Positions 2,060 through 48,896 of a stretch of DNA of 64,000 bases are shown one piece after another. The notes beneath the pieces were generated by a model, which searched no databases, was not told where the DNA came from, and saw only the letters and a program-made list of their open reading frames with translations. Numbering within the stretch: the first letter of the stretch is position 1; the number at the start of each line of letters is the position of its first letter. A program made the position numbers and the translations under genes. The DNA is from Saururus chinensis (lineage: Eukaryota > Streptophyta > Magnoliopsida > Piperales > Saururaceae), in NCBI GenBank assembly GCA_035235625.1, contig CP141146.1:17292501-17356500 (forward strand), written 5' to 3'.

Positions 2060-2880
2060 TGAGGTTAAGAATTCAAGATATGTTAAACAAGAGGTATTGA
2101 ACATCCTTTTTAAGTGTGGCTGACAGCAATATGAACCTTGTTCGGCTCTTCATAGGCACAATGCAGTAATAAGTATAAGGTTTTCTGAATCATATATGAT
2201 ATATGCTAGAGAGAGTAGAAAATGATACATGAGCTGAAATCTGCCATCTGAACAACAATATTGAATGATAACACAACTAGCAGAATTTTTTATTTATATT
2301 ATTTTTTCTCAATGATATGTGTGGAAAAAAAGTAATATAAAATCTGACTATTTTACATATATTTTTATACAAAAAATTCATTTAAATGGTTTGTAGAATA
2401 AATTCACATTATATTTGAAAGTCATGTAGCTTAAATTAACTGCATTTTACTATATTCACACAATGTTCACAACGAATTGGATTAAGAATTATATTTGATT
2501 AATTATATAATAGTGCAATATTTGTTTAATGTTATCTAACTAAAATGTTGATTTTTATTTATAATTTTTTTTCATACATAATTATGTCTAGGCATATCGC
2601 AATTTTATAAAAAGATATGGATTGAATTGTTTGTAAAGAAAACTGCTTAAGTTTTAAAATTGTAAATCGATAAATAATAAATTTTAAGAGTAATATTCTC
2701 TGATTAATAAATTACACATTTGAAGATTTCCCATTGTTTACCTAATGTTGCATTTTTGTTTCTAAAATATTGCCCGGCCAAAAAAGGGAATATTTCATAT
2801 TCCCTGATTTTTCTAAAAATTGCCAATAAACACGGACTTACATAATATAAGAAAAGTTTTGGATAAAAATACCCCTAGTC
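2060..2880. other. AT-rich spacer of block X, copy 1
   Basis: AT-rich DNA without a convincing gene. It is shared with 16,270-17,060 and 42,350-43,190, and part of it with 24,870-25,125. The other members carry small indels and substitutions spread evenly, with no sign of a conserved reading frame. Confidence 0.5.
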
Positions 2881-3892: not shown

Positions 3893-4770
3893 TGCCGCTG
3901 TTATACGTTCTAATAGGTAAGTGTCGGGACCACTCACAATAGGTTTTTAACATTCAGGGCAAACCATATGGAGCTATTAATGTGGGACAAAGGGGGTAGT
4001 ATTATTGTCTTGAAATTATTGAAAACAAAGAAGTACTGGGAGCAAGAAGGCCTTCAATATGTTAAATTGTTCTAGCGGTTTTCCAATATTTCCTTGTGAA
4101 TAAACTTTCCTACGTGATCCAATCAAGAGAAGTGGTCTTTCCTTTGAATGTCCATACTATCAATTCTAACAAAGATATATGGATATGGGCGCAAAAAAGA
4201 ATTGACTATGGGATTGTCCTCTAGTATGATGATTACCAACCTGAAGCATTAAATGACATTCAATTTTAAAGAGCTGCCATTTATTAGATTGTGAATGAAT
4301 AAAATCAATGTTTCATAACGTTTGTTAGCAGTTTCGACAACATAATGTTTAGTTTTGCTTCAATTTCACATTATTGCCATTGTGAAATGGCTTTTGTCTA
4401 TGAAAAAAGACTACTTATTGACGTATATTTTCTTCATTTTTTGCACTAAAGAACATAAACCCTAAATCTTTTCTTCATTCTTTATGACCATATCATTGTC
4501 ATTTGTCAATGCAAACTTGAAGAGCTTGAATATATGTTTTTGCTTTTTTATGCTAGTCTGTTTTGTTGAGAATTGATCTTCAAATGATGTATATAAATCA
4601 ATTGACCATTTGCAAATGCAACTAAGTACTTCCATATGAAGGAAAAGATGCAAGGATCACATAATTGACAAACTTACAAATTTTTTATGTTCTTGTTTAG
4701 AACCATATGTGTGAAACAAGAAATAGTCAATTAAAACTACATGTGTGAAATAAGAAGTAGTCTAAAATCC
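3893..4770. other. Spacer of block X, copy 1
   Basis: AT-rich DNA shared with 18,073-18,958, 25,890-26,706 and 44,229-45,141. Near 3,970-4,005 it contains 'ctattaatgtgggacaaaggg', which looks like one end of a Stowaway-type MITE. Small frames such as 4,462-4,653 (minus) are disrupted in sister copies. Confidence 0.45.
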
Positions 4771-4848
4771 TACTCCCTCTGTCCTATAGTAATAACTCCA
4801 TTTTTTTATAAAAAGTGATTTTTATTGAATGGAGGGATTCACAACTAA
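4771..4848. mobile_element. Left half of a Stowaway MITE, split by CACTA element A1
   Basis: It starts TACTCCCTCTGTCC, the terminal repeat of Stowaway (Tc1/mariner) MITEs with its TA target site, and runs through 'tttttattgaatgg' to the exact start of element A. An intact relative with both ends is at 60,450-60,612. The matching right half is absent from the right flank of A1. Confidence 0.65.
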
Positions 4849-5113
4849 CACTATAAGAAAAAGAAGAAAAGTTTCACTAATGACTATTAGCGACACTTTT
4901 TAAGTGTCGCTAATAGTACTACTATTAGCGACAATTTTTCTTTCTTTGCTAATATTAGTTTTTTTACAACGCTTTAAAAAGCGTATTATATACTCTTGCT
5001 ACAAAGTGTTGCTAATAATATAGTATTAGCAACGCTTATTAAGCATCGCTAATACGGAAACATATTTAAAAAATAATTATTAGAGATGTTTTTTAAATGT
5101 CGCTAAAATTTTT

Positions 5114-5620
5114 TTAGCGATGTGGTGGTAGAGGAACCGGGGCAGAGATGGGGCTGGGCAGGGTAGGAACGAGGGTAGTGAAAAATAGGGGAGAGGGTGG
5201 AAGGAAGTAGCTAGGACGACGGGGGTAGTTGGGACTGCGGCAATGAAGCCAGGAGGTGGGCAGAGCCATGGCGGCGGGTTGGACCATAGCAGGGTGGAGT
5301 GAAGAAAAATAGGAGAGAGGGCAGACGGGGATACTGGTAGGTAGGGGAAGCCGGGTGGCAGCAGAGGCTAATCTGTGGCTACGGGCCAAGCTAGAGAAGG
5401 GGAACAAGTGCGAGAGAAGGGGAGCGGGCGTTGACAGGTTGCAGACGGGCATGGTGAGGCAGCGAACAAGTGATGGATGAACAACGGAGAAATTTTAACG
5501 AAGAAGGGAGGAGTTGGCAATGGAAGGAGTGAGGGGGGGTGTGGTAGGGAGAAATTTTTCCCTGCCACATGAGGGAAGAAAATGCATGGAAATTTCACCC
5601 GCATTTAATTTTTTTGTGAC
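5114..5620. other. GC-rich module of element A (copy 1)
   Basis: A GC-rich block follows the subterminal motifs and begins near 'gatgtggtggtagagg'. Related blocks lie at 19,500-19,766 plus 24,058-24,440, 27,105-27,600, 29,096-29,580 and 45,490-46,000. Minus-strand frames are proline/serine/leucine-rich and change frame between copies, so they are probably not genes. Whether the block was captured from a host gene cannot be decided here. Confidence 0.5.
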
Positions 5621-5693
5621 GCTTTCCAATAGTCACAAAAATTATTTTTTGTGTTGTTTAGAAATAAATGTCACTTTAAATAAAACCACAAAG

Positions 5694-5925
5694 AGAGAGT
5701 GAGAGAGAGAGCATAGAGTAAAGGGAGAGAGAATAGAGAGAGCATAGAGAGAGTAGAGAGAAGAGGGAGAGAGACAAGATAGAAGAGAGAGACAAGAGAG
5801 AGAAAAGGGGGAGAGAGAGAGGAGTGATACGAGAGACAAAAAAAGATAAGAGAGTGGATAGAGAGAATGAAGAGAGAGGACAAGATCGAGAAGGGAAAGA
5901 AAAGAAAAGATGAGAGAGAGATAAG
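5694..5925 (+). repeat. GA-rich tract
   Basis: About 230 bp of almost pure purine (GAGA/GAGAGA with scattered A/T). Equivalent tracts occur in the other A copies at 24,440-24,575, 27,665-27,925, 29,630-29,860 and 46,070-46,280. Confidence 0.9.
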
Positions 5926-6149
5926 AACACATTTACTCTTGTTTTTAAAGTCTGTCTATTCTAAATCTAACTTAATCACAACAACTTCAAATCAAATTAT
6001 AAGACTCATTACATACACAAGGTTTTTTGACATAATTTTAACAAATAAATCGGTCAATAAACTAGACATATGACATATTTTTTTATAAACTTACTATTTG
6101 CGAAGCTCAATCAAGAGACTCACAAATAGGTTTTTTTTTATCTTTCTCC

Positions 6150-6433
6150 TCTCTCTATTCTCCCTCTCATCTCTCTCTCTTCTCCTGCCCTCTCTCTCTT
6201 CACACTCTCTCTAGCTCTCTCTTTCTCTATTTTCACTCTCCTCTTTCTCTCTCCACTCTCTGTTCTTTCTCTTCACTCTATGTTCCCTCTCTCTCTTCAC
6301 TCTCTCTCTCTCTCTTTTCACTCTCCTCTTTCTCTCTCCACTCTCTGTTCTTTCTCTCCACTCTATGTTCCCTCTCTCTCTTCACTCTCTCGCACTTCTC
6401 CTCTCTCTCTCCCCTCTCTTCACTCTCTCTCTC
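6150..6433 (+). repeat. CT-rich tract immediately left of B1
   Basis: About 280 bp of CTCT-type pyrimidine repeat. Element B1 starts directly at its right edge. The other B copies also start inside CT tracts (30,250-30,438 and 46,500-46,784). Confidence 0.9.
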
Positions 6434-6989
6434 CACTACAACAAATAGTACTATTAGAATTGCTTTTAAGTGTCGCTAATAGCATTGCTAAATGTATCAC
6501 TAAAAATGCAGTCGCTCTTTCTCATTAGCGATGCTTATGACAAAGCGTCACTAATAGTCTAACATTAGCGATGTTTATCTTTTTGTCACTAAATATTTTC
6601 TTTTTGTGACGCTGAATTATGTGTCGTTAATAAATTGTTTATTAGCGACGCTTAATTCTAAGCATCGCGAATAATTAATTATTAGCAACGCTAAGTTAAA
6701 CATCGTGAGTATAATTTCTTTTTAAGAAAACATAATATATTTTTATTATCGACGATTGTACATGCGTTGCTAACAATAAAAATTAAAAAAAATATTAGTG
6801 GTGCTTAAATACACATCGCTAATAAGAAAATTTTGAAAAAATAATAAAAAAGTCTATAGCAACACTTGAAGAAAGCTTCGCTAATCAAAAAACATATTTT
6901 AAAAAAAAATTATATTAGCGACTCTTTACAAATGTTGCTAAAAAATAAAAAAAGTGTTTAGCGAGGCTTTCTAAAAGCGTCACTAATAA

Positions 6990-7770
6990 CATAAAAAAAT
7001 TAAAAAAAATGCCCTGCTGGTGGCGGGATGACTGGAGGGGCGCCGGCGGGAGGTACTGGGGTGGGAAATGGGGGTGGCTTTAGAATCCGGCAAAGGTGCT
7101 GGATCCGGTGCCAGTTGGGGGATAGAGAGAGGGGTGACTAGGAAGAGAGGGGAGGGGTGACCGAGGAGAGGGGGTGACAAGGGAGAACGTGGAGGAGGGG
7201 TGCCTGATTCCGAGGGGGGAGCCAGCTCCCGCCCCTAGAGCCCCCTCCTCTGGCCAGACGACCAAAGGAGGGGGCGAAAATAGGGAACAAGGGGCAGGAG
7301 GAAAACATAGATGAGGGGTGACAGGGGAGAGGGGGTAGGAGGGGGAGCTAGAATCCGGCAGGGACCCGGATTCTTGACCCAGAGCCCCTTCCTCATGCCG
7401 GACAGACCCGAGGAGGGGGTGAAAATCAGGAGCAGGGGCGGGAGGAAAACAGAGAGGAGGTGGTGCGGGGAGAGAAAGGGGGTAACTAGGAAGAGGGGGA
7501 GGGGAGCCAGATTCCGGCGGGGAGTGGGATTCCTACCTCCAGAGCCCCCTCCTCCGGTCTGACAGACTGGAGGAGGGGATGGAAATCTGGAGCGGGAGAG
7601 GAGGAGGAATAAAGAGAGGGGGATGGGGGAGATCAGGGGGAGGGGGAGCCAGATTCCTGCCCCAAAGCCCCATCCTCCGGTTGGACAGACCAGAGGAGGG
7701 GGCAAAAATCTTGAGTGGAGGGCAGGAAGGGGGGCGCAGGGGAGAGAGGGGAGGAGGTGACCAGGGACAT
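6990..7770 (+). repeat. GC-rich tandem repeat, ~120-160 bp period
   Basis: The landmark 'gagccccctcctc' (with variants) recurs at about 7,238, 7,382, 7,542 and 7,664, each followed by 'gacagac..gaggaggggg' and preceded by 'agccagattcc'-type sequence. The same array occurs at 47,330-48,060. Long frames on both strands are proline/glycine-rich and are not conserved as proteins between the arrays. Confidence 0.7.
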
Positions 7771-7778
7771 TGGGTTTT

Positions 7779-8100
7779 GCGCTAGAATCGACGTACATGG
7801 CGGCGGGCACCATGCAGGGGCTGTCAATCTTTCCTTCAGCTCGTCGGCGAACCTCGAGATCTTCATGGTTGATTTCCAGTGCACCGTTACCAAGTTGCCT
7901 GTGGTAGGGGAGTGCTCCAACAGTGAGCGGTTCAAACGGCTGTCGTGAGGTAAGCCCACAGGACACACGGTGGGGCTGGTGGCGGGTGAGCTCGCCAATG
8001 GAATCATGGGCTTAAGGAATCCGGTGACAAGAATAGTGAGAGGAGAGGCTTTAAATGCGAAGAAACGTGGTCGAGCAAAAGTTTTGCTCAACTGTGCGCA
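7779..8100 (+). pseudogene. Captured SEC31 gene fragment (N-terminal WD40 region), copy 1
   Basis: SEC31 is the outer-coat WD40 protein of COPII vesicles budding from the ER. The plus strand reads [12 protein letters not shown], then after a 1-base shift [17 protein letters not shown], then [18 protein letters not shown] and, past a TGA, GLVAGEL...LRNPV. This matches, in order, the start of plant SEC31 ([47 protein letters not shown]). The TGA at 7,946-7,948 falls where the family has a tryptophan (TGG to TGA). The region has lost the rest of the gene and cannot encode SEC31. The order and length of the matches make this more than chance. Confidence 0.82.
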
Positions 8101-8638
8101 GGATGAGAGAGGGTGAGGAGAGAGAGAAGAGTGAGAGGAGAGAAGAAAGAGAGAAGAGAGAGAGGAGAGAGAGGGAGAGGATAGAGAGAGACGAGAGAGG
8201 CAAAAGAAGAGGAGAGAGAGCAAGGAGAGAGAGTGAAGAGATAGAGAGGGAAGAGGGAGGAGAGAGAGTGTAGAGAGAGATGAGAGAGAGGGTAGAGAGT
8301 GAAGAGAGAGTGTTTAGAGAGAGGAGAGAGAGAGTGAGGAGAGAGATGAGAGAGGAGAAAGAGAGAGTGGGTAGAGAGTGTGAAAACAGAGAGAGGGTAG
8401 AGAGAGTGTGTAGATAAAGGAGAGAGAGTGAGGAGAGATGGAAGAGAGAGTGCATAGAGAGAGTGAGGAGAGAGAGAGAAGAGAAAGAGAGAGGGCAGAG
8501 AGAGAGTGAGTGAGGAGAGAGAGTGAGGAGAGAGAGATGAAAGAGAGAGAGAGAGGAGAGAGTGTAAAGGGAGAGAGGGGGTAGAGAAAGGAGAGAGAGG
8601 GTAGAGAGAGGAGAGGTAGGGTAGAGACACTCAGCACA
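8100..8638 (+). repeat. GA-rich tract in B1
   Basis: About 540 bp of GAGAGA-type purine repeat directly after the SEC31 fragment. The equivalents are 35,315-35,780 and 48,425-48,880. Long leucine/serine frames on the minus strand here are translations of the repeat. Confidence 0.9.
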
Positions 8639-8639
8639 G

Positions 8640-9035
8640 AGCATCTCTATTAGACATAGTATTCGCGAATCTTACGTTTTAGCATCGCCAATAGTCTAAT
8701 AGCGACGTGCTAAGCATCGCTAATAGGCTTGCATATTTAAAAAAAGTTACACTATTTGTGACACTAAGTAATGAGCGTCGCAAATAGTGTATTGTATTGC
8801 AACGATTACAATTTAGCATTGCGATATATTAAACTATTAGCGACGCTCTTTACTTATCGTCGTAAATTGTGTAAACTTTTTTCCATATTCAAGCCTATTA
8901 TCGATGCTCACTAAAGAACGTATCTATTAGACTAAGTATTGGCGATGCTATAATTAAAGTGTCACTGATACTATGCCTAATAGTAACACTCTATATTGAG
9001 CATTGCTAATAGACTTATTTTTAAAAAAAACTTTA
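8640..9035. repeat. Motif array with TTTGCGACGCTC-type variants
   Basis: Inverted pairs such as 'ctatttgtgacactaag' and 'gagcgtcgcaaatagtg' alternate with TTAGCGACGC pairs. The same arrangement is found at 35,800-36,480. The motif resembles the subterminal motifs of A and B but carries TTTGCG in place of TTAGCG. Confidence 0.7.
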
Positions 9036-9039
9036 ATTT

Positions 9040-11060
9040 TCCCCCTCTCTACCCTCTCTCTCTTTACCCTCTTTCTCTACCCTCTCTCTCTCTCCTCTCC
9101 TCTCCTCTCTCTACCCTCTATCTCTTCACCCTCTTTCTCGTCTATTTCTCGTCTCTCTCTCCTCTTTCTGCCTCTCTCTTTTCCATCTCTCTCTCTTCTA
9201 TCTATCCTCTCTCTCTCCTCCCTCTACACTCTCTCTCATCCTCTCCTCTCTCTTTACCCTCTCTCTCTACCCTCTCTCTATCTTCTCTCTCTCCTCTCTC
9301 TCTCATCACACTCTCCTCCCTCTCTTTACACTCTCTCTCTACCCTCTCTGTCTCGTATATCTCTCTCTTCACTCTCTCTTCCCTCTCTCTCTTGACTCTC
9401 TATCTACCCTCTCTCTTCTCTCTCCTCTACCCTCTTTCTCTTCACTCTCTCTCCTCTCTCCCGCGCGTGTCAACGTATGCCCCGGCTCTGAGGACTAGAT
9501 GGGAGAGAGTAGAGGGATTTAATTTAAATTTTTTTTAGATTCTTTAATTACATATTATATTTGAAAAATAATAATATATCAAATAAAATAAATTTATTAC
9601 CGATGCTTAGGATAAAGTGTTGCTACTACCCTAGATAGTTGCGACGCTTATGCCTAAGCGATGCTAATACCTAGGGTAGTAGTCACGCTTTATCCTAAGC
9701 GTCGCTACTAAATTTATTTTATTTATTTTTAAAATATAAGATATAATTAAAAATACACTTATCCCTCTCTCTCCTCTCCCTCTCTCCTCTCTCTCTCCTC
9801 ACCCTCTCTCTTCTCTCTGTACACTCTCTCTTTTCTCTTTTCTCTTTCCTCTCTCTAATCTCTCTTTGCCCTCTCTCTCTTCTCTATCTTATCTTCAGTC
9901 TCTCTCCCTTCTCTATCTTATCTTCAATCTCTCTCTCTACCCTCTCTCTCCTCTTTCCTCTCTCTTCTCTCCTCTTTCTCCTCTCTTCTCTCCTCTCTCT
10001 CTTCTCCTCTCTACACTCTCTCTTATCACACTCTCTCTCCTCTTTTACTCCTCTTGCCTACACGCATCAATGTGAGTCCCAGCTCTGAGGACGAGAGGGG
10101 AGAGAGTAAGGGAATTTATTTTAATTTTTTTGAGATTTTTTAATTATATATAATATTTTAAAAATATTAATATATTAAATAAAAGAAATTTATTAGCGAC
10201 GCAATCGCTACTACCCTAGGTAGTTGCAATGCTTACCATAGTAGCGACACTTTATCCTAAGCGTCGTTACTAAATTTATTTTATTTATTTTTAAAACATA
10301 AGATATAATTAAAAAATACACTTATCCCTCTCTCTAGCATCTCTCTCTCCTCCCTCTCTCCTCTCCTTCTTTCTCTACCTCTCTTCTCTCTCTCTCTCTC
10401 CTCACTCTCACTCTCTACACACTCTCTTCTCTCTCTCCCTGCCCTCTCTCCTCACTCTCTCTCTACACTCTCTCTTCTATCTCTCCTCGCTCTCTCTCCC
10501 CTCTCTTTCCTCTCTTTGTCTCCTCTCCTCTCCTCTCTCTATCAACACACTCTCTCTCCTCCATTATCTTTTTACTCTTTTTTTATATATTATATTTTAA
10601 AATTAATAAGAAATTTTAAATATAATATATTAACGACGCAATTTCACGAGCACTAATATATTTTATTTTATAGTTTTTTATTTTTAAAATATAATAATAA
10701 ATTAATTTCTTCCCCTCTCAACTCTCTCTCATCTTCACTCTCTCTTCTGTCTCCTCTCTCTCTCAACTCTCTCTCATCTTAACTCTCTCTTCTGTCTCCT
10801 CTCTCTCTCCTCTCTTTTCTCTCACACTCTTCTCTCTACCCTCTCTCTCTTCTCTCTTCTCTCTCTAGCTCCTCTTCTCTCTCTTTTCACTCTCTCTCTT
10901 CCTCTCCATTCTCTCTCTTCTTACTCTCCTCTCACCCTCCTCTCTCTTTCTCTCTCTACCCTCTCTCTTCTCTCTCTCCTCCTCACTCTCACTTTCTATC
11001 AGTCACACACACATGCGTAAACTTGAGCCCTATCTATGAGGATGAGTGGGGATAAAGTAT
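9040..11060. repeat. Alternating CT tracts and ~600-bp repeat units
   Basis: CT tracts at about 9,040-9,465, 9,760-10,060, 10,323-10,570 and 10,710-11,000 are separated by a recurring cassette. The cassette holds a GC-rich 'ctgaggacgagagggg'-like stretch (9,487, 10,084 and a decayed form near 11,035), AT-rich DNA, and in the first two units a GTAGCGACGCTTTATCC-type inverted pair. The array is repeated at 36,495-38,060. Confidence 0.7.
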
Positions 11061-11109
11061 GAAAATTTTATTTGTTATTTACTATTTATTTATTATATAT
11101 AAAAATAAA

Positions 11110-11719
11110 TTATATTATATTTGATATGTTTATTTTAAATTTTTTAAATATTTATTTATTTAATAAAATTAATTAATAAAGCTATTAGTGGAAATATTAA
11201 AAGAGTCACTAATAGTTGTATTATTTGCACCGCTTTTAACAAAGCGTCGCTAATAAGCTTAGTATTTTAAAAAAAAATTATTTTATTTGCTATGCTTTCT
11301 TAAAAGCGGTGTTAATAATATAACTTTTACTTAAGCATAGCTATAATTAATACTATTTGCCAAGCTTTTTTAAAAACATCGTTAATAGTTCTAAATTATT
11401 TATTTTTTATCTTAAATTTACAAGTATTAATGACATTTTTGTTAAGTTTCGCTATTATTAAAGCTATTAGTGATGCTTTAAAAAACACATCGCTAATAGT
11501 TATAATTTTGTTTCTTTAAAACAAATAACTTTTACTCATGCTTTTATAATGCATTGCTAATAGCACAACTATTAGCGACGTTTGCTATGAATCGTGGCTA
11601 ATAGTTGTAATATTATAGACGATTTTTATTAAGAGTTGCTAATAGACGTACTATTAGTGACACTTTATAAAAAGTTTCGCTAATAGTTAATTTTTTTACG
11701 ATGCTTTTCTATGGGTCGC
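11110..11719. repeat. Right-arm subterminal motif array of B1
   Basis: Dense inverted pairs of TTAGCGACGCTT-type motifs, equivalent to 38,170-38,780 in element B2. It is interrupted at 11,720 by a solo LTR and resumes at 12,893. Confidence 0.7.
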
Positions 11720-12892
11720 TGATAAGTATAATTTATGCGTTATTTTACCCTTAATTATTCTATTTTCTAGTCTCATTTAAGTGTTAATATAGGTTAAATT
11801 ATTAAATATTAAATTTAATTAGGTTAGAAAAAGCTTCCATGGTGTTTTGAATTAAATTGACTTATTTTGCAGATTCTTCATTGGCGATCGAACGGGGTCA
11901 CTTACCGATCGATCGGTTACACGTGATTTTTAAGAAAATTCAGTTCAAGCGTTCGAACGGGCATGCAGGGCGATCGATCGGCATAACGCGCAGATTCCTT
12001 ATTTCACCCAATTTTGAGTCCTTCTCATATCCAACTCTTTTCTTACGGATCTAATGCCTATATAAAGACTTATTTGGCACGAAATTAAGAGAGAACAAGT
12101 AGATTTTCTGAAGAGAAGAAGGAAGAAGAAGATGGAGAAGAAGCCAAAGCTTTCAATGGAGATTCAAGTGTTTTCTTCTACCATGGAAGGCTAAACTATT
12201 CTTTTACTTAGGAGTTGATGAATCTATAGATAAGTTTCAATTTCTTTTCTTTTTAATTTAGATCTCAGTTGTGAATTATGACAATTGTATGATAAGGATT
12301 TCCTTTTTAATGGAAGAGTTTTTAATGTTTATTCAAATCTATGTTGATTTATTGTCTTGTAGATGATAGATTGATGTGGTTTTGATATTTGCATCAATTC
12401 TAATTTCTGTGATTTAGATGAGATGGTCATACAATAGTTTTAATGTTCAGATAATTAAGGACTTGGATGAGTTATACTAAGATTAGACGGGTCATGCCTA
12501 TAGCTATTTAGTGTAGATGATTCGTGCTATTGTCGAAGATAGTTCATGCCATGGAAATTAATTAATGATTCTTTCTGAAGTAATTCTAGCTTGTAGCTGA
12601 GAATACTTGTTCATATTCACACTAGATTTAGATTAAAAGTTAAGGAATTGTTATGGTTCTATAGTGGATTCGATTTCCTAAGTAAAATCTATCACATTAA
12701 TCTCTTGTTTTTAAACTAGTTGTTTTCTTTTCCTTTACTTAATTAAAGTTTAAGTTGTTTTACTTTTAAATCAGCAAATTCCTTTTTATATTTAGTAATT
12801 ATTCATCCGTCCCTGAGGTTCGACAACCCTTAAATACTCATCCTAGTACAATTACCTTGTACACTTGCAAAGGGTTTAATTATAAACGATCA
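11720..12892 (+). mobile_element. Solo LTR, family 1 (1,173 bp)
   Basis: It begins TGATAAG, ends CGATCA, and is flanked by perfect 5-bp duplications GTCGC (11,715-11,719 and 12,893-12,897). The empty site is visible in the sister element at ~38,775 ('tgggtcgcaagtagtag'). TG...CA ends, 5-bp duplication and an internal TATA box identify an LTR retrotransposon LTR. No internal retrotransposon body is present, so it is a solo LTR. A relative in opposite orientation is at 33,609-35,070. Confidence 0.88.
12058..12067 (+). promoter_or_regulatory. TATA box of solo LTR family 1
   Basis: CCTATATAAAG lies about 340 bp into the LTR. The matching box in the other family member is on the minus strand at 34,433-34,441, so it is a conserved feature of this LTR. 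Confidence 0.55.
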
Positions 12893-12957
12893 GTCGCAAG
12901 TAGTAGTTTTTAGCGACGATATTCATTGCATCGCTAATAGTACATTTTATTGTAGTG

Positions 12958-12970
12958 TTCTACTCTCTCT

Positions 12971-13007
<37 letters not shown>

Positions 13008-30240: not shown

Positions 30241-30469
30241 TGTTTTAATATCTCTCCTCTCTCTTCTCCCTCCCTCTCTACCCTCTCTCTCTCTCTCTTC
30301 ACAGTCTCTCTACCACTCTCTCTCTACCCTTTCTCTCTTCACACTCTACCTCTTTCTCTCTTCACTCTCTGTTCTCTCTCTCTTCACTCTTTGTTCCCTC
30401 TCTTTTCTCTCTCGCACTTTTCTCTCTCTTCTCCCTCTCACTACAACAAAATGTACTATTAGCGATGCA

Positions 30470-31020
30470 TTTATTAGCGACATAAACAAAAATGCAGCTA
30501 AAAAACACTACTTATAACACATACCAAATTATCCCAAAAAAATGAACTATTAGCGACACATATCATCTATTAGCGACACTTAATTTCAAGCATCGCTAAT
30601 ACTAACCATATTAGTGACACTTTCTAATAAATGTCGCTAATTAGTTAGGCTACTAGCAATGCTTTAAATAAGCATCGCTAAAAGATATTTATTTTTAAAA
30701 AAAAATAGAAAAAATCATAACTATTGGCGATGCTTTATCTTAAGTGTTGTTAATAGTTTTAATATATTTACTTATTATATATACAAATAGTAAATATTGA
30801 AAAAAAATATTATATTTAATAAGTTTATTTTAATTTTCTTAATATTTATTTATTATATAATGATTTATTAAATAAAATTATTTAATAAGGCTAATAGCAA
30901 CACTTGTAAACAAGCTTCTCTATTATCAATGCTATTTGCGATGCTTGTTAAAAAGCGTCGCTAATAAGTAAATATAAATTTTTAATTAAAGGTAGTGTCA
31001 AAAATAGATTAAAACTATCA
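30470..31020. repeat. Left-arm subterminal motifs of B2
   Basis: Dense TTAGCGACACTT/AAGCATCGCTAAT inverted pairs after the B terminus, interleaved with AT-rich DNA. Confidence 0.65.
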
Positions 31021-31084
31021 CTATTTATATATAATGTATTTTATTTCTTAAAATTTCTTATTAATTTTAATATATAATTTATAA

Positions 31085-32935
31085 TAAAAGAGAGTGAAGA
31101 GAACAAGAGAGAGGAGAGAAAGAAGAGAGAGTGTGTGATCAGGAGAGAGAGAAGGAGATGAGAGATAGAGAGAGAGAGAAGAGAGGGGTGAGGAGAGAGA
31201 GAAAGAGAGAAAGAGGGGAGAGAGGGTAGAGAGAAAGAGAGGGTGAGGAGAGAGAGAGGATGAGGAGAGAGAGAAGAGAGGGGGTGAGGAGTGAGAGAGA
31301 AGAGAAAGAAAGAGGGGAGAAGAAATAAAATTTTAATGATATATTATTTTTTACAAAAATTATAAATAAAAAAATGTGTATTAGCGACGCATAACCATAT
31401 ACGTCGCTACTACCTTAAGTTAGTAGCGACATACATATATGCATCGATAATACCCGTATGCTTTAGCGACACATATCCTATACGTTGTTAGTAGCGATGC
31501 ATATCCAATATGCATCGCTACTACCTTTGGCTGGTAACGACGCATATAGTTATGCGTCGCTACTACAAATTTTTATTTTAAAAAAAATTAAATAAAAGAG
31601 AGACAAGAGAGAGGAGATAGAGAAGAGAGGGTAGAGAGAGGAAGATAGAGAGAATGTAGAGAGAGAGGGAAAATTTTCATTCTAATTTTTTTATCTTTTA
31701 TTTAAAAATTAGTCAAAAAAATTAATAAATAAAAATGTATTAGTGACGCATATGAATATGCATCACTAATACTCTTGTTATTTGCGACCAATATTTATGC
31801 ATCTCTATAACCTTGGTAGTAGCGACGCATATTCCTATGCATCGCTATTACCTTATAATTTATTATATTATATTTAATATATGTAGAGAGAGAAAAAAAG
31901 AGGATATATAAAGAGAGAGAGGAGAGAGAGAGGATGAGAGAGGGGGAGAGAGAGAGAGGGAGGGGGATAGAGGGGAGAGAGAGGAGGAGGAGTGAGAGTA
32001 GACATAATGGGGGAGGGGAGAGAGTAGACATAATGGGGGTGAGGAGAGAGGGAAAATTAAAATTTAATTTGTTTAAAAATTAATCAAAAAATAAATAAAT
32101 GGACTCTTGTTATTAGCGACGCAAAAGAATATGCATCGCTGATACCCTTTTTATTAGCGACACATATTCCTATACATCGCTAATAACCTTGGTAGTAGCG
32201 ACGCATATTCTTATGCGTTGCTATTACCTTATAATTTATTATATTAATATTAAAATATGTAGAGAGAGGATATAGAGAGAGGAGGAGAGAGAGGACAAAG
32301 GGAGGAGAGAGGGAGGGAGAGGGAGACAGAGAGAGGAGAGACATAGACAGGGAGAGAGGGAGGATAAAGGGAGAGGGAGGACAGAGAAATGGAGGAGAGA
32401 TGAGAGAGAGGGAGGAGAGAGAAGAGGGAGGAGGTGAGGAGCGAGAGAGTAGAGAGAGGGAAAATTTTAATTTTAGTTTTTTTTATTTAAAAATTAATAA
32501 ATGGAAATGTATTAGTGTCGCATATGAATATGTGTCGTTAGTTCTCTTGTTATTAGTGACGCATAAGAATATGCATCGCAAATATCCTTGGTATTAGCGA
32601 CGCATATTCCTATGCATCGCTATTACCTTATAATTTATTGTATTGATTTTTAAATATGTAGAGATAGAAAAAAAAGGGAGGATATAGATAGAGTGGTGAG
32701 AGGGGGAGAGAGAGGAGGAGAGGGAGAGAGAGGAGGAGAGGGAGAGAGAGGGAGGAGAGAGAGAGAGATGGAGAGAGAGGAGAGAGAGAGAGGGAGGACA
32801 GGGAGGGAGAGAGAGGAGAGAGTGAGGGAGGAGAGAGAGGAGAGATAGAGAGGGAAGGAGCAAAGGGAGAGAGAGTGAGTGAGGAGGTAGGTGAGAGTGT
32901 TGAGACAGAGGAGAGAATGGGGGAGAAAGTAATAT
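31085..32935. repeat. Tandem array of ~380-400-bp units alternating with GA tracts
   Basis: Each unit has a GA tract, an AT-rich stretch, and inverted pairs of TTAGCGACGCATAT / ATATGCGTCGCTAC motifs. The marker 'ccttataatttatt' recurs at about 31,851, 32,227 and 32,628. A first variant (31,380-31,560) carries GTAGCGACGCATAT pairs. Confidence 0.75.
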
Positions 32936-33070
32936 TATTTGCGACACTTGTGGATAAGCGTCACAAAGAACAATTGGCAACGTTTAAAAAATGCCGCAAA
33001 TATAGAAAATTTGCGACGCTTTTATAAAAGCGTCGCCAAAAGATTGATTTTTGCGACACTTAGATTAAGC
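32936..33070. repeat. TTTGCGACGCTT-type motif pairs
   Basis: Three inverted pairs with almost perfect arms, such as 'tttgcgacgcttttataaaa' followed by gcgtcgc, mark the end of the GA/AT array and the start of GC-rich DNA. Confidence 0.55.
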
Positions 33071-33608
33071 ATCGCAAATGACATTCATTTGCGCGCACGC
33101 CATGCGAAAATTGCCCGGGTGATATATATTCGCGCATGTGGGTGTTTTTCGCCCAATCCCTCCCCCTCCTTGCCTCGCCCCGCCAAGTGTGCCCTCCGCC
33201 ATTGGCCGCCCCACTTTACCACTGCCGGCTTTCCGCCCGCCGCTCCTCCCCTCCTGCATCCGCCCCAACCATCCCCTACCCCCCAGTTGCACCCATGTGA
33301 CCAGCCGCTGCCCGTCCACCCATTGTACCCCTGCCACCCGTCTGACGCTCTGCCCCTGCCCGCCACCAGTGCGCCCCCAACAACCCCCCGCGGCACATGC
33401 GCACCTCCCGCTGCCTCTCGCTTCCTTGTGCCCCCCAGCCACCCTCAGCTGCCCACGGCCGCCCCGTGTCCGCCCCCTGCCCTCTCTCCCCTCGCGACCC
33501 GAGCCTCTCTCCCCAGCCTCCCTCCTCCCCTCCTCTCTCCCTGGGTCCACCCCCTGCTTCCCCTTCTCTATTTTAGAGGAGGGGGGCAGATCCAGGGGAG
33601 AGAGGGGG
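33071..33608. other. Cytosine-rich block of B2 with long low-complexity frames
   Basis: About 540 bp of C-rich DNA. Frames on both strands (up to 228 aa from 32,939) exist only because stop codons are rare in such DNA; the products are proline/alanine- or glycine/arginine-rich with no motif. Possible captured host 5' region, unproven. Confidence 0.4.
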
Positions 33609-34432
33609 TGATCGTTTATAATTAAACCCTTTGCAAGTGTACAAGGTAATTGTACTAGGATGAGTATTTAAGGGTTGTCGAACCTCAGGGATGGATGAAT
33701 TATTACTAAATCTAAAGAGGAATTTGTTGGTTGAAAACTAAAACAACTTAAACTTTAATTAAGTAAAAGAAAGGAATCAACTTGTTTAAAAACAAGAGAT
33801 TAATATAATGGAATTTACTTAGGAAATCGAATCCACTATAGAACCATAATAATTCCTTAACTTTTAATTTAAATTTAGTGTGAATATGAACAAGTATTCT
33901 CAGCTAAAAGCTAGAATTACTTCAGAAAGAATCGTTAATTAAATTCCATGGCATGAACTATCTTTGACAATAGCACGAATCATCTACCTAAACTAGCTAT
34001 AGGCATGACCCGTCTAATTTTAGTATAACTCATCCAAGTCATTAATTATCTAAACATTAAAACTATTGTATGACCATCTCATCTAAATCACAAAAATTAG
34101 AATTGATGTAAATATCAAAACCACATCAATCCATCATCTACAAGACAATAAATCAACATAGATTTGAATAAACATGAAAAGCTCTTCCATTAAAAAGGAA
34201 ATCTTTATCATACAATTGTCATAATTCACAACTAAGATCTAAATTAAAAAGAAAAGAAACTGAAACTTATATATAGCTTCATCAACTCCTAAGTAAAAGA
34301 AAAGTTTAGCCTTCCATTGTAGAAGAAAGCACTTGAATCTCCATTGAAAGCTTTAGGTTTTTCTCCATCTTCTTCTTCCTTCTTCTTTTCAGAAAATCTA
34401 CTTTCTAACCTTCAATTTCGAGCCAAATATAT

Positions 34433-34441
34433 CTTTATATA
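34433..34441 (-). promoter_or_regulatory. TATA box of solo LTR family 1, second copy
   Basis: TATATAAAG on the minus strand, at the same place as 12,058-12,067 in the sister LTR. Confidence 0.5.
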
Positions 34442-35009
34442 GGCCTAAGAACCGTAGGAAGAAGTCCAATATGAAAAAGACTCAAAATTGGCTTAAACAA
34501 GGAAACTGCGCGTTATCCCGTTTGAACGCCCTGCATGCCTGTTCGAATGCCTATACTGCATTTTTCTCCAAAATCACATTATCCCGTTTGATCCTTAAAA
34601 ACTCCCTGTTCGAACGGCTACACTATTTTTGCAATCTGAACAATTTTTATGGACAATCCATATTCATGTTCATTAAGCTCTTTCTTTTATGTCTATATTA
34701 ATTTCCAACATGTTTATTACTCCGAAAAGTTGTCCAAATCACTTTAAAGCATGTCAAGACTATTTTGACTTATTCCAAACATTGTCCAAGTACTTCGATA
34801 AGTGTATTTTACCTACAAAGCATTAAAACATCACATTTTAGACATGTAGAATATAATTAAAATACCAACTTGATTCAAATACATATCTAAACTACTAATA
34901 ACTACAAAATTATTAATAATTAAACTAAAATACTAATATCTATCTTAATCTAAATAAACCATAACTAACTCTAAATTAACATAATCTATACTAGCAAATA
35001 AGGTAAAAA

Positions 35010-35010
35010 G

Positions 35011-35057
<47 letters not shown>
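35010..35057. repeat. (TA)n microsatellite
   Basis: About 48 bp of alternating TA near the start of the solo LTR; absent from the sister LTR. Confidence 0.9.
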
Positions 35058-35059
<2 letters not shown>

Positions 35060-35079
35060 CGTACTTATCAGGGGGAGCA

Positions 35080-35185
35080 AGACTTATGAAATCCGGCGAC
35101 AAGGACAGTGAGAGGAGAGACTTTAAATGCGTAGAAACGTCGTCCAGCGAAAATTTTCCCTGCTGCGTGCAGGAAGAAACACCAT
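35080..35185 (+). pseudogene. Short remnant of the captured SEC31 segment in B2
   Basis: 'gacttatgaaatccggcgac' through 'ctgctgcgtgcaggaag' aligns with the tail of the SEC31 fragment at 8,015-8,105 and 48,335-48,425. The upstream, clearly SEC31-like codons are missing here, so identity rests on the alignment with the sister copies. Confidence 0.55.
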
Positions 35186-35314
35186 CAATTTCACCTGCAT
35201 TTAATTTCATTTTACGACACCTATCAAAAAAGAGTGATTGTGACATTTTAATAGAAATGATGCAATAAGCATTAAAGTAGCAACATTTACAACCAAACGT
35301 TGCTAAACATAAGA

Positions 35315-35780
35315 AACCGAGAAAAGAAAAAGAGAGAGAGGAAAGAAGAGAAAGGAAAGAGGAGAGAAAAAGAGTGACTGTGCAGAGAAAAAGAGGTAGA
35401 GAGAATGTGTGAAGAGAGAGAGGTAGAGAGAGGGCAGAGAGAGGAGTGTAGAGAGAGAAGAGAGAGAGTGAAGAGAGAGGAGAAAGAGAGAGTGAAGAGA
35501 TAGAGAGGGTAGAGAGAGATGGAAGAGTGAGGAGAGAGGGTGAGGAGAGAGAGTTTAGATAGAGGAGAGAGAGAGGGGGGAGAGAGAGGAGAGAGAGAGG
35601 GTAGAGAGAGGAGAGGGGGGAGATAGAGGAGAGAGAGAGGCTAGAGAGAGGAGAGAGAGGGTAGAGAAGGAGAAGAGAGAGATAGGAGAGGAGAGAGAGG
35701 GAAGAGAGAGAGAGTGTAGAGAGAGATGGGAGAGAGAGAGAGAAGAGAGAGTGTAAGAGAGAGAGGGTAGAGAGAGGGCG
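35315..35780 (+). repeat. GA-rich tract in B2
   Basis: About 465 bp of GAGAGA-type repeat, the equivalent of 8,100-8,638. Confidence 0.9.
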
Positions 35781-35799
35781 AAAAATAATTTTTTTTTTA

Positions 35800-36490
35800 A
35801 ATATGCCTATTAGCGACACTCACCACATAACGTCGCTATTAGACATAGTATTAGAGACGATTTAGTTTTAGCGTCACCAATACTTAGTCTAATAGCAACG
35901 CGCTTTACTAAGCGTCAATAATAGGCTTGTATATTTAAAAAAGTTACACTATTTGCGACACTCAGTAAAGAGTGTCTCGAAGAGTGTACTATATTGCGAC
36001 GATTACAATTAAGCGTTGCGATTTATTAAACTATTTGTGATGCCCTTTATGAAGCGTCGTAAATTGTGTAACTTTTTCTGTATTCAAGCTTATTAGAGAT
36101 GCTCAATAAAGATTGAGCATCTCTATTAGACTAAGTATTGGTGACTCTATAATTAAAGTGTCGCTAATACAATGCCTAAGAGCAATGCTAAGCGTTGATA
36201 ATAGGCTTGTATATTTAAAACTATTTACGACACTCAGAAAAGAGCGCCGCAAATAGTGTAATGACAATTACAATTAAGTGTTGCGATTTATTAAACTATT
36301 TGCGATACTATTTACTGAGCATCGTAAATTGTGTAACTTTTTTCTGTATTCAAGCATACTAGGAATGCTCACTAAAGAGCGTCTCTATTAGACTAAGTAT
36401 TGGCAACGCTATAATTAAAGCATCGCTAATACTATGCCTAATAGCAATGCTCTTTACTGAGCATCTCTAATAGGCTTTTTTTTAAAAAAA
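35800..36490. repeat. Mixed TTAGCGAC and TTTGCGAC motif array
   Basis: Collinear with 8,640-9,035 but duplicated internally: the 'ctaagtattgg.gac' unit appears twice (36,130 and 36,390). Confidence 0.65.
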
Positions 36491-36494
36491 TTAT

Positions 36495-38060
36495 TTAAAT
36501 TTTCCCCCTCTCTACCCTGTCTCTCTTCTCTCCTCTCCTCTCCTCTCTCTATCTCCTCTCTCTACTGTTTATCTCTTTACCCTCTCTCTTCTCTCTCTCC
36601 TCTATATCTCGTCTCTCACTCCTCTCTCTGCCTCTTTACCCTCTCTCTCCTCTCTCTACCCTCTCCCTCTCCCTCATCCTCTCAACTCTCTACCCTCTCT
36701 CTCTCTCTACCCTCTCTCTCTCTCTCTCTCCTCTCATTCTCTTTCCTCTCTCTTCTCCCTCTACCCTCTCTCTCATCCTCTTCTCTCTATCTACCCTCTC
36801 TCTCTCTCTTTACCCTCTCTATCTTTACACTCTCTCCACTCTCTCTCTACCCTCTCTCTCTTTCTCCTCTCTCTCTCTTCAATCCCTCTCTTCACTCTCT
36901 TCCCTCACTCTTGACTCTCTCTCCTCTCTCTTTATACACTCTCTCCACTCTCTCTACCTTCTCTCTTTCTCCTATCTCTCTCTCTCTCTCTTCACTCTCT
37001 TCCCTTGCTCTTCTCTCTCTACACTCTCTCTCATCCTCTCTTCTCTCTCCTCATTCTCTCTCCTCTCTCTACACTCTATCTACCCTCTCTCTCTTCACTC
37101 TCTCTACCCTCTCCTCTCTCCCGCGCATGTCAACGTATGCCCCGGCTCCGAGGACAAGAGGGGAGAGAGTAGGGGAATTTAATTTATTTCTTTTAGATTT
37201 TTTAATTACATCTTATATTTGAAAAATAATAATATATCAAATAAAATAAATTTATCACTGTTGCTTAGGATAAAGCGTTGCTACTACCCTAGGTAGTTGC
37301 GACGCTTACGCCTAAGCGACGCTAGTAGCTAGGGTAGTAGCAACGCTTTATCCTAAGCGTTGCTACTAAATTTATTTTTAAAATATAAGATATAATTAAA
37401 AAATACACTTATCCCTCTCTCTCCTCTCCCTCTCTCCTCCCTCTCTCTTCTCTCTCTCCTCGCCATCTCTCTCTACCCTCTCTCTTCTCTATCTCCTCCT
37501 CACTCTCTCTCTCTCTCTACACTCTCTCTTCTCTCTCCTCTCTCTATCTCATCTCTCTCTACCCTATCTCTCTTCTCTATCTCCTCCTCACTTTCTCTCT
37601 ACCCTCTCTCTCTTCTCTCTTCTCTCCTCTCTTCTCTCCTCCCTCTCTCCCCTCTCTCTCTCTACACTCTCTCTCTCCTCACTCTCTCTCCTCACTCTCT
37701 CTCATCTTTCTCTCCTCTCTCCTACACGCATCAACGTGAGCCCCGGCTTTGAGGACGAGAGAGGAGAGAGTAGGGAATTTATTTTTATTTGTTTGAGATT
37801 ATTTAATTATATATATATATATATATTTAAAATAATAATATATCAAATTAAGTAAATTTTTTAGCGATGTGTAGGATAAAGCGTCGGTACTAGCCTAGGT
37901 AGTTGCAATGCTTACGGTAGTAGCGATGCTTCATCCTAAGCGTCTCTCTCTCTCCTCACTTTCTCTCTCCTCTCTCTCTACCCTCTCTCTCTTCTGTCTC
38001 TCCTCCTCACTCTCTCACTTTCTATCTCTCACACACATGTGTAAACTTGAGCCCGCTCTT
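36495..38060. repeat. Alternating CT tracts and ~600-bp units in B2
   Basis: CT tracts at about 36,495-37,120, 37,410-37,725 and 37,945-38,030 alternate with the 'gaggacgagagggg' cassette (37,150, 37,750, decayed near 38,065). Collinear with 9,040-11,060. The first cassette has a clean inverted pair, 'gtagcaacgctttatcctaa' against 'gataaagcgttgctac'. Confidence 0.7.
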
Positions 38061-38169
38061 TGAGGAGTGGGGATAAAGTATGGGAATTTTATTTATTATT
38101 TTACTATAAATTTATTTTATATATAAATTATTAAATAAATTATATTATATTATATTTGAGAAGTATATT

Positions 38170-38820
38170 TTAAATTTTTTATTATTTATTTATTATATAT
38201 TTATTTATTTCATAAAATTAATTTATAAAGCTATTAGCGGAACTATTAAAAGAGTCGCTAATAGTTGTATTATTAGAGTTGTTTTTAACAAAGTGTGGCT
38301 AATAAGCTTAATATTTTTTAAAAAAAAGTTACTTTATTTTCGATGCTTTCTTAAAAGAGGTGTTAATAATATAACTATTAGCGCCGCTTTTACAAAAGTG
38401 TCGCTATAATTAATACTATTGTCCACGCTTTTTTAAAAGCATTGTTAATAATTCAAAATTTTAAAATTTACAACTATTAGTGATGTTTTTTGTTAAGAGT
38501 CACTATTATTAACACTATTAGCGATGTTTTAAAACAATGCATCGCTAATAGTTATAATTTTTTACTTTTTTCTTTTAAACATATAACTTTTAGTGATGCT
38601 TTTATAAAGCATCGCTAAAAGCACATCTATTAGTGATGTTTACTATGAAGTGTGGCTAATAGTTGTAATATTAGAGACGTTTTTTATTAAATGTCGCTAA
38701 TTAGATCTACTATTAGCATTGCTTTATAAAAAGTGTCGCAAATAGTTAATTTTTTTACGACTCATTTCTATGGGTCGCAAGTAGTAGTTTTTAGCGACGA
38801 GTTTCATTGCGTCACTAATA
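38170..38820. repeat. Right-arm subterminal motifs of B2
   Basis: Collinear with 11,110-11,719 plus 12,893-12,940, but without the solo LTR. This provides the empty site for the LTR insertion at 11,720. Confidence 0.7.
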
Positions 38821-38838
38821 GTACATTTTGTTGTAGTG

Positions 38839-45219: not shown

Positions 45220-47329
45220 CACTACAAGAAAAAGAAGAAAAGTTTCACTAATGACTATTACCGACACTTAAAAAGCATCGCTAATAGTATTACTATTAGC
45301 GACACTTTTTCTTTCGTTGCTAATATTAGTTTTTTTACAACGCTTTAAAAAGTGTATTAGATACTCTTGCTACAAAGCATCGCTAATAATATATTATTAG
45401 CGACACTTATTCAGCATCGCTAATTCGAAAACATATTGAAAAAAATTTATTAGAGATGTTTTTTAAATGTAGCTAAATTTTTTTTAGCGATGTGGTGGTA
45501 GAGGAACCAGGGCAGAGATGGGGCCGAACGGGGTAGGCGCGAGGGTAGTGAAAAATAGGGGAGAGGGTGGAAGGAAGTAGCTAGGACGACGAGGGTAGCT
45601 GGGACTGCGGCAATGAAGCCAAGAGGTGGGCAGAGCCATGGTGGCGGGTTGGACCATAGCAAGGTGGAGTAGAGAAAAACAGGAGAGAGGGCAGCTGGGG
45701 ATACTGGTAGGTAGGGTAAGCCGGGTGGCAGCGGAGGCTAATTTGTGGCTAGGGGCCAAGCTAGAGAAGGGGAACAAGAGCGAGAGAAGGGGAGGGGGCA
45801 TTGACGGGTTGCAAACGGGCATGGATAGGTGGCAAACAGCTGATGGACGAACAACAGAGAAATTTTGACGAAGAAGGGAGGAGTTGGCAGTTGGCAGTGG
45901 AAGGAGGGAGGGGGGATTTAAGCATGGTAGGGAGAAATTTTTCCTGCCACATGTGGGAAGAAAATGCATGCAAATTTCACCCGCATTTAATTTTTTTGTG
46001 ACACTTTCTAATAGTCACAAAAATAGTTTTTTGTGTTGTTTAGAAATAAATGTCACTTTAAATAAAACCACAAAGAGAGAGAAGAGGGAAAGAGAGCATA
46101 GAGAGAGTAGAGAGAAGAGGGAGAGAGAGAAGATAGAAGATAGAAGAGAGAGACAAGAGAGAGAAAAGGGGGGGGAGAGAGGAGAGATACGAGAGACAAA
46201 AAAAGATAAGAGAGTGGATAGAGAGAATGAAGAGAGAGGAAGAGATAGAGAAAGGAAATAAAAGATGAGAGAGAGATAAGAACACATTTACTCTTGTTTT
46301 TAAAGTCTGTCAATTCAAAATCTAACTCAACCACAACAACCTCAAATCAAATTATAAGACTCATTACATACACAAGGTATTTTGACGTAATTTTAACAAA
46401 GAAATCAACCAATAAACTAGACATATGACTTGTATTTTTTTATAAACATTACTATTTGCGAAGCTTAGTAAAGAAAGTCACAAATAGGTTTTTTTCATCT
46501 TTCTCCCCTTTCATCTCTCTCTTCTCCCTCCCTCTCTACTCTCTCTCTCTCTCTTCTCCCTCCCTCTCTACCCTCTCTCTCTCTCTCTTCACACTCTTTC
46601 TACCACTCTCTCTCTTCACACTCTCTCTACCCTCTCTCTCTTTTCACTCTCCTCTTTCTCTCTCCACTCTCTGTTCTTTCTCTTCACTCTCTATTCCCTC
46701 TCTCTCTTCACTCTCCCTTTTCTCTCTCGCACTTCTCTCTCTCTTCTCCCTCTCTCTCTTCTCTATGTACCCTCTCTCTCTCTCCACTACAACAAATAGT
46801 TCTATTAGAATCGCTTTTAAGTGTCGCTACTAGCGTTGTAAATGTGTCACTAAAAATGCAATCGCTCTCGCTCATTAGCGACGCTTATGACAAAGCGTCA
46901 CTAATAGTCTAACATTAGCAACGTTTATCTTTGTGTCACTAAATATTTTCTTTTTGTGACGCTGAATTATGTGTCGCAAATAAATTGTTTATTAGCGATG
47001 CTTAATTCTAAGCATCGCGAATAATTAATTATTAGCGATGCTAAATTAAACATCGCTAAATAAATTTTTTTTAAGAAAACCTAAATTTTTATTATTATCG
47101 ATGATTGTATATTTGTCGCTAACAATAAAAATAAAAAAAATATTAGTGGCACTTATATACACATCGCTAATAAGAAAATTTTGAAAAATAATAAAAAATA
47201 GTCTATAGCAACACTTCAAGAAAGTGTCGCTAATCAAAAAACATTTTTTTATATTAGCGATGCTTTCTAATAGCGTCGCTAATAACTTCAAAAAAAATTA
47301 AAAAAAAATGCCTTGTTGGCAGCGGGATG

Positions 47330-48060
47330 ACTGGAGGTGCGCCGGCGGGAGGTACTGAGGTGGAAAATGGGGGAGGTGGTAGAATCCGGCGGAGGTGCCA
47401 GATCAGGTGCCATTGGGGGGACAGAGGGGGGTGACTAGGAAGAGAGGGGAGGGTGACCGCGGAGAGGGGGCTGACCAGGGAGAAGGTGGAGGAGGGTGTG
47501 CCGGAATCCAGCGGGGAGCCAGCTTCCTCCCCCAGAGCCCCCTCCTCTAGTCGGACAGACCAGAGGAGGGTGCGAAAATAGGGAACAAGGGGCGGGAGGA
47601 AAACATAGATGAGGGGTGACCAGGGAGAGGGGTTAGGAGGGGAGCTAGAATCCGGCGTGGACTCGGATTCTCGACCCAAAGCCCCCTCCTCAAGTCGGAC
47701 AAACCCAAGGAGGGGGTGAAAATCAGGAGCAGGGGGTGGAAGGAAAACAAAGGGGGGTGGCGCAGGGAGAGAAAGGGGGTAACTAGGAAGAGGGGGAGGG
47801 GGAGGGGAGCCGGATTCCAACGGGGAGTGGGATTCCGACCCCCGGAGCCCCCTCCTCTAGTCCGACGGACTAGAGGAGGGGATGGAAATCTAGACCGGGA
47901 GAGGAGGAGGAATAAAGAGAGGGAGAAGGGGGTGATCAGGGAGAGGGGGGAGGAGGGAGGAGGGGGAGCCAGATTCCTGCCCCCTAAGCCCCCTCCTCCA
48001 GTTGGATAGACCGGAGGAGGGGGCAAAAATCTTGAGCGGGGGGCAGGAAGGGGGGCGGAG
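47330..48060 (+). repeat. GC-rich tandem repeat of B3
   Basis: 'agccccctcctc' units at about 47,536, 47,680, 47,846 and 47,986; collinear with 6,990-7,770. Confidence 0.7.
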
Positions 48061-48099
48061 GGCAGAGAGGGCAGGGGGTGACCAAGGACACTGGGTTTT

Positions 48100-48430
48100 G
48101 CATTGGAATCGACGTACATGGTGGCGGGCACCATGGCGGGGCCGTCAATCTATCCTTTAGCTCGTCGGCGAACCTTGAGATCTTCATGGTCGATTTCCAG
48201 TGCACCGATACCAAGCTACCTGTGGTAGGGGAGTGCTCCATCAGCGAGTGATTCAAACGGCTGTCGTGAGGTAAGCCCATAGGACACATGGTGGGGCTGG
48301 TGGCGGGTGAGCTCACCGGTGGAAGCATGGGCTTAAGGAATCCGGTGACAAGGACAATGAGACGAGAGGCTTCAAATGCGAAGAAACATGGTCGAGCAAA
48401 AAATTTGCTCGACTGCACGCAGGATGAGAG
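48100..48430 (+). pseudogene. Captured SEC31 gene fragment, copy in B3
   Basis: Same SEC31 segment as at 7,779-8,100: STYMVAGTM, then in the +1-shifted frame [38 protein letters not shown] and LRNPV. It shares the 1-base shift after GTM and the TGA at the family tryptophan. It has an extra stop where copy 1 still has arginine (SER to SE-stop), so it has decayed further. Not translatable as SEC31. Confidence 0.8.
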
Positions 48431-48880
48431 AGGTTGAGGAGAGAGAGAAGAGAGTGAGAGGCAGAAGAAGAGGAGAGAGAGATGAGAGAGCAAGGAGAGA
48501 GAGTGTAGAGAGAGATGACAGAAAGAGGAGAATGAGAGAGGGTAGAGAGTGAAGAAAGAGAGTGAGGAGAGAGATGAGAGAGAGAGGAGAAAGAGAGCGG
48601 GTAGAGAGAGTGAAAACAGAGAGAGGGTAGAGAGAGTGTGTGGATAGAGGAGAGAGAATGAAGAGAGAGGGAAGAGAGAGTGGAGAGAGAGAGTGGGGAG
48701 AGAGATAAGAGAAAGAGAGAGGGTAGAGAGAGTGAGGAGAGAAAGATGGGAGAGAGAGAGAGAGAGAGAGAGCGGAGAGTGTGTAAAGGGAGAGAGAGAG
48801 GGTAGAGAAAGGAGAGAGAGGGTAGAGAGAGGAGAGGTAGGGTAGAGAGAGGAGAGAGAGGGTAGAGACACTCAGCACAG
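48425..48880 (+). repeat. GA-rich tract in B3
   Basis: About 455 bp of GAGAGA repeat, the equivalent of 8,100-8,638. Long Leu/Ser frames on the minus strand are translations of the repeat. Confidence 0.9.
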
Positions 48881-48896
48881 AGCATCTCTATTCGAC

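What the first reader, a model, noticed from the sequence alone, without database searches (positions are those of the whole stretch)
7779..8100. CACTA elements carry a captured SEC31 (COPII coat) gene fragment
Seen: the plus strand encodes, in the correct order, [44 protein letters not shown] and LRNPV. Known: this order is that of the N-terminal WD40 start of plant SEC31. A second copy is at 48,100-48,430 and a remnant at 35,080-35,185, all at the same place in element B. Inferred: an ancestral B element captured one exon of a host SEC31 gene and spread it by transposition and duplication. Both long copies share a 1-base shift and a TGG-to-TGA change, so the capture or first damage predates the copies. 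If transcribed, antisense or small-RNA effects on the host SEC31 gene are possible.
Basis: partly seen in the sequence, partly recalled or inferred. Interest (0 to 1): 0.75.

Follow-up and report, generated by a model that had tools for sequence, protein, structure and literature searches.

The report
Dead SEC31 fragment inside CACTA transposon
A transposon in this plant-like DNA carries a broken piece of a gene for the cell's vesicle coat (SEC31), copied along with a larger block of DNA; this is a well-known kind of event and the piece looks like decaying junk.

Summary
tblastn of a Sec31A piece (PDB 7sul_A, chain positions 40-110) against the whole window ranks 7805-8002 first (E 2.8e-4) and 48144-48323 third. 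The read-through fragment finds one PDB sequence of 177,635 at E<=10, that same Sec31A (E 0.0056). 0 of 5000 shuffles reach either copy's score.

It lies in a CACTA-type element ("B") whose ends match at 24/30 and 28/30 bases, amid many subterminal repeats; no transposase was seen in the open stretches scanned. It is a pseudogene: both copies share a one-base frame change and a TGA; copy 2 has one more TGA.

Homology between the two copies runs from 524 to 8663, through the left ends of elements A and B into the outer flank, so they come from duplication of a block, not from separate transpositions. Divergence is like that of the surrounding element: no sign of selection. The 'remnant' at 35,083 keeps at most the last codons.

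Parent gene, exon borders and small RNAs could not be tested. A new member of a known kind (Pack-CACTA-like gene-fragment capture); low interest.

The parts
7779..8031 (+). SEC31 N-terminal pseudogene fragment, copy 1 (frame change near 7815, TGA inside)
48100..48352 (+). SEC31 fragment, copy 2 (same frame change and TGA, one more TGA)
35083..35177 (+). remnant of the 3' border, 81% identical to 8011-8106
6434..12957 (.). CACTA-type element B, unit 1 (6524 bp, ends 24/30 alike), holds copy 1
30439..38838 (.). CACTA-type element B, unit 2 (8400 bp, ends 28/30 alike), holds the remnant
46785..48896 (.). element B, unit 3, right part missing, holds copy 2
7061..7778 (.). GC-rich, partly tandem-repeated stretch directly 5' of the SEC31 fragment
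8036..8106 (.). stretch 3' of the fragment shared by the three B copies; SEC31 or element sequence, undecided

Best explanation
A non-autonomous CACTA element (B) carries a captured, dead piece of a host SEC31 gene (253 bases, about 84 codons, of the N-terminal WD40 start). Shown: the SEC31 similarity, its place between the ends of B, the shared lesions, the shared outer left flank of the two copies. Inferred: the piece was acquired by one of the routes proposed for Pack-CACTA elements (aberrant excision of neighbouring elements, or gap repair), B sat once inside element A, and the whole block was later duplicated to give three units, of which two keep the fragment. Since then it has decayed like the rest of the element. 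It makes no SEC31 protein.
For: SEC31 similarity. CACTA ends. Subterminal repeats: 108 matches of TATTAGCGAYGC with one mismatch allowed, 0.26 expected; 102 of 108 lie inside the spans 4849-13851, 26784-39722 and 45220-48896, the other six at 19048-19457. Shared lesions. Block duplication: 524-8663 with 40715-48904 (86%), 824-5121 with 15053-19237, 14642-19160 with 40724-45388, 12893-14356 with 38774-40224. Neutral decay: 26 of 256 sites differ in the fragment (10.2%), against 10.2%, 14.3%, 12.2% and 11.5% in four neighbouring element stretches; by codon position 4/72, 7/72, 9/73; 20 of 26 changes are transitions, densest at CG (11/44) and CHG (5/29) sites against CHH 7/84, as in methylated transposons.
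Against: The flank outside the elements (524-4848) differs less (6.3%), so the block did not decay evenly; gene conversion or faster decay of methylated element DNA would both explain it. The order CG>CHG is not seen in all neighbours: CHG is about equal or higher in two of four other stretches. The target-site duplication of B is unclear (CTC/TTC and TCT/CTC). The left flank of B in unit 2 matches that of unit 1 only at 77% in CT-rich sequence (6076-6336 with 30182-30439). No parent gene was seen, so host origin is inferred from similarity only. No plant proteins were at hand, and Pfam gave nothing.
Confidence: 0.82

Rival explanations
1. The SEC31 piece was not captured during transposition of B but fell into B later (for example as filler DNA in a break repair), or was a pseudogene already there.
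For: The units carry rearrangements: an inverted piece 33609-34577 alike to 11923-12892 and a 116-base copied piece at the broken end of unit 3. The fragment sits between a GC-rich array and, after a short stretch, a GA-rich array.
Against: It lies well inside the two ends of B, and the stretch just 3' of it is present in three units. A later filler insertion into B would itself be a form of capture.
Confidence: 0.12
2. The copies in this window spread by transposition of B.
For: B has recognisable ends in two of three units.
Against: Homology of units 1 and 3 continues through the left ends of A and B into the outer flank, and that of units 1 and 2 through the right ends of B and A.
Confidence: 0.04
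3. The fragment is kept because it yields small RNAs or antisense RNA against the host SEC31 gene.
For: Conflict between captured fragments and their parent genes is proposed in print (Muyle et al. 2021, seen only as a reference title in PMC13317346, and an 'epigenetic conflict model' passage in PMC8978399). A CT-rich stretch just outside B (6141-6431) and a GA-rich stretch (8225-8522) are inverted repeats at 74% and enclose the fragment, though both are of low complexity.
Against: Divergence like the rest of the element; one of three units has lost it; no RNA data.
Confidence: 0.05

Closest known systems
Pack-CACTA / Pack-TYPE elements (PMC8903248, passages; Catoni et al. 2019 not held)
   Same: non-autonomous element with CACTA ends carrying host coding DNA
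   Different: target-site duplication not clear, internal tandem arrays, parent gene not found; copies here multiplied by block duplication
CACTA-like elements of Chenopodium with captured AP2 and Neprosin fragments and satellite arrays (PMC8978399, passages)
   Same: short gene fragment, and in some elements tandem arrays, within a CACTA element
   Different: there a TAD conserved domain is named in the elements; here no transposase-type domain was seen; different genes
Tgm-Express of soybean (PMC1947982, listing and start of abstract only)
   Same: CACTA transposon mobilising host gene fragments
   Different: its title reports alternative splicing of the fragments; here one fragment, expression unknown

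Membership tests
CACTA superfamily, non-autonomous | CACTA terminal inverted repeats | tested here: met
   B1 24/30, B2 28/30 identical between ends; right end of B3 missing
CACTA superfamily, non-autonomous | 3-bp target-site duplication | tested here: inconclusive
   B1 CTC/TTC, B2 TCT/CTC, in a CT-rich target
CACTA superfamily, non-autonomous | subterminal repeats in both orientations | tested here: met
   108 matches to TATTAGCGAYGC on both strands, 0.26 expected, 102 of them inside the element spans
CACTA superfamily, non-autonomous | no working transposase gene of its own | tested here: inconclusive
   of 59 open stretches of 75 aa or more with normal composition, 20 were scanned with Pfam and none gave a transposase: both of the 2 in B1, 3 of the 5 in B2, none present in B3.
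Pack-CACTA | host coding DNA between the ends | tested here: met
   SEC31 similarity; that it is the host's own gene is inferred
Pack-CACTA | parent gene elsewhere in the same genome | not testable with these tools
   genome search not answered in six tries
functional SEC31 gene | open reading frame | tested here: not met
   frame change and TGA in both copies

The most novel reading that the evidence does not exclude
The captured piece, enclosed by CT-rich and GA-rich inverted arms, is transcribed into partly double-stranded RNA and feeds small RNAs that act on the host SEC31 gene, a COPII coat gene.
Probability: 0.05. Interest if true: 0.5.

Novelty: new member of a known kind. Interest (0 to 1): 0.2.

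Why it matters
It adds one more gene to those found inside CACTA elements, and shows that several neighbouring copies of a captured fragment need not mean repeated transposition: here the flanks show block duplication. I found no report of this capture in the held library, within these searches: 0 papers hold both whole words CACTA and Sec31; 0 hold sec31, transposon, plant and pseudogene together; 6 hold sec31, transposable element and COPII, none with a title about capture (listing only); of 93 papers with three of CACTA, gene fragment, capture and SEC31, the 20 listed have no SEC31.

Tried and rejected
Pfam on the fragments: no SEC31 or WD40 model; one sub-threshold Romo1 match for copy 2 (E 0.0085, 16.9 bits against a cut-off of 27.6) taken as chance. 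Relatives in public collections: none in viral contigs by protein (13 pattern matches, none confirmed) or by one DNA pattern, none in prokaryote genomes (55 pattern matches, none confirmed), none in plasmids; as expected for plant DNA. The phage and E. coli collections were not searched. Exon borders and parent gene: no source. An age was left out because it would rest on a recalled rate and an unknown host. Whether 8036-8106 is still SEC31 could not be decided. Recalled, not from a call: that the window is plant DNA, the plant SEC31 sequence pattern, that 7sul_A is the human and 2pm9_A the yeast protein (the calls name only Sec31A and SEC31), the defining features of CACTA elements, and gap repair as a capture route.

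Full report
Observation. The forward strand at 7779-8031 encodes, across two frames and one TGA, a stretch that reads [12 protein letters not shown] / [43 protein letters not shown] / GKPTGHTVGLVAGELANGIMGLRNPV. A second copy lies at 48,100-48,352 (90.8% identical over 261 bases). Both share the frame change and the TGA; copy 2 has a further TGA.

Is it SEC31? Three tests agree. (1) The read-through piece finds 1 of 177,635 distinct PDB sequences at E<=10: Sec31A (7sul_A, chain positions 40-109), E 0.0056, ungapped. The part downstream of the frame change alone gives the same chain in the same register, but only at E 1.2, 4th of 5 weak hits. As a yardstick, that Sec31A piece finds another solved SEC31 (2pm9_A) at E 0.092. 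(2) In the other direction, Sec31A 40-110 against the whole window gives 7805-8002 first (E 2.8e-4, 66 residues, 30% identity) and 48144-48323 third (E 0.045), with a low-complexity hit between them (E 0.032); filter and composition correction were off. A profile of the two solved SEC31 pieces ranks the two loci first and second, at 5.6 and 3.4 bits against -0.4 for the next. (3) 0 of 5000 shuffles reach the score of copy 1 (82, largest shuffle 43), copy 2 (73, 47) or the single-frame piece of copy 1 (52, 41). The closer match to the plant SEC31 start is recalled, not tested: no plant proteins were available.

Anatomy. Element B has CACTACAA ends at 6434 and 12957 (unit 1) and 30439 and 38838 (unit 2), and a left end only at 46785 (unit 3). 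It lies inside sequence bounded by other CACTA-type ends (element A; left 4849, 26784, 45220; right 13851, 39722), but the two ends of A do not show a target-site duplication and are less alike (15/30 and 21/30, ungapped), so A as a single element is less sure. Subterminal motifs TATTAGCGAYGC abound (108 matches, 0.26 expected, 102 inside the spans named). The SEC31 piece follows a GC-rich array whose similarity to its own upstream units ends at 7757, 7766 and 7789 in the three longest matches of copy 1 and at 48088-48097 in copy 2, that is, at the start of the fragment. After it come a 71-base stretch shared by three units and then a GA-rich array.

How the copies arose. Self-comparison suggests three units: 1 to about 14285, 14286 to about 40230, and 40242 to 48896. 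Homology of units 1 and 3 runs from 524 to 8663 (40715 to 48904), through the left ends of A and B. Units 1 and 2 share the right ends of B and A and what follows (12893-14356 with 38774-40224) and the left end of A (3961-6085 with 25893-28086); the left flank of B in unit 2 matches only weakly (77%, CT-rich). So B appears to sit at the same place in the three units, which I read as duplicates of one block. This corrects 'spread by transposition'. In unit 2 the region 5' of 35083 is AT-rich and, further up, inverted sequence, and only the last codons of the SEC31 similarity can remain; I read this as loss, not as a state before capture, with moderate confidence.

Fate. The copies differ at 26 of 256 sites in the fragment, 58 of 571, 101 of 705 and 9 of 74 in neighbouring B sequence, 175 of 1521 in A, and 271 of 4297 in the outer flank. 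Differences by codon position, downstream of the frame change, are 4/72, 7/72, 9/73. Changes in the fragment are mostly transitions (20 of 26) and densest at CG (11/44) and CHG (5/29) sites (a site counts for a class if either copy has the context, so only classes can be compared; in two of four other stretches CHG is as high as CG or higher). This is what a silenced, decaying transposon shows, and gives no sign of selection on the piece.

Function. No SEC31 protein can come from it. Effects on the parent gene through small RNAs are possible in principle and conflict of this kind is proposed in print (reference title in PMC13317346; passage in PMC8978399), but nothing here supports it.

Known context. 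CACTA-like elements with short gene fragments and tandem arrays are described in Chenopodium (PMC8978399, passages), and Pack-CACTA elements in Arabidopsis and maize (PMC8903248, passages); a proposed capture route is summarised in PMC13317346 (passages). The present case is a new member of that kind.

Noticed in passing
48897-49012: At the broken right end of unit 3 lies a 116-base piece 99% identical to 42828-42943 in the same unit, like templated filler DNA in a break repair.
   Followed up: partly
14184-14522 and 40022-40396: zf-RVT remnants of a LINE-like element (Pfam E 8.1e-20 and 5.5e-13) span both junctions between the units.
   Followed up: partly
33609-34577: Piece inverted relative to 11923-12892 in B1, 91% identical, inside unit 2.
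   Followed up: no
7171-7481 and nearby: GC-rich tandem units of about 144 bases; several contain, by eye, a CCCCCTCCTC...GAGGAGGGGG palindrome.
   Followed up: partly
8316-8521 and 9218-9423: GA-rich and CT-rich arms inside B form inverted repeats (71%), though of low complexity.
   Followed up: no
4849-6433 against 524-4848: Between units 1 and 3 the element part has diverged nearly twice as much (11.5%) as the outer flank (6.3%).
   Followed up: partly
60448-60535: 79% match to 4771-4862 and 45142-45233, across the left end of element A, far outside the repeated units.
   Followed up: no
61131-63621, minus strand: Several open stretches of normal composition, perhaps exons of a host gene; four scanned, none reaches a Pfam cut-off.
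   Followed up: no
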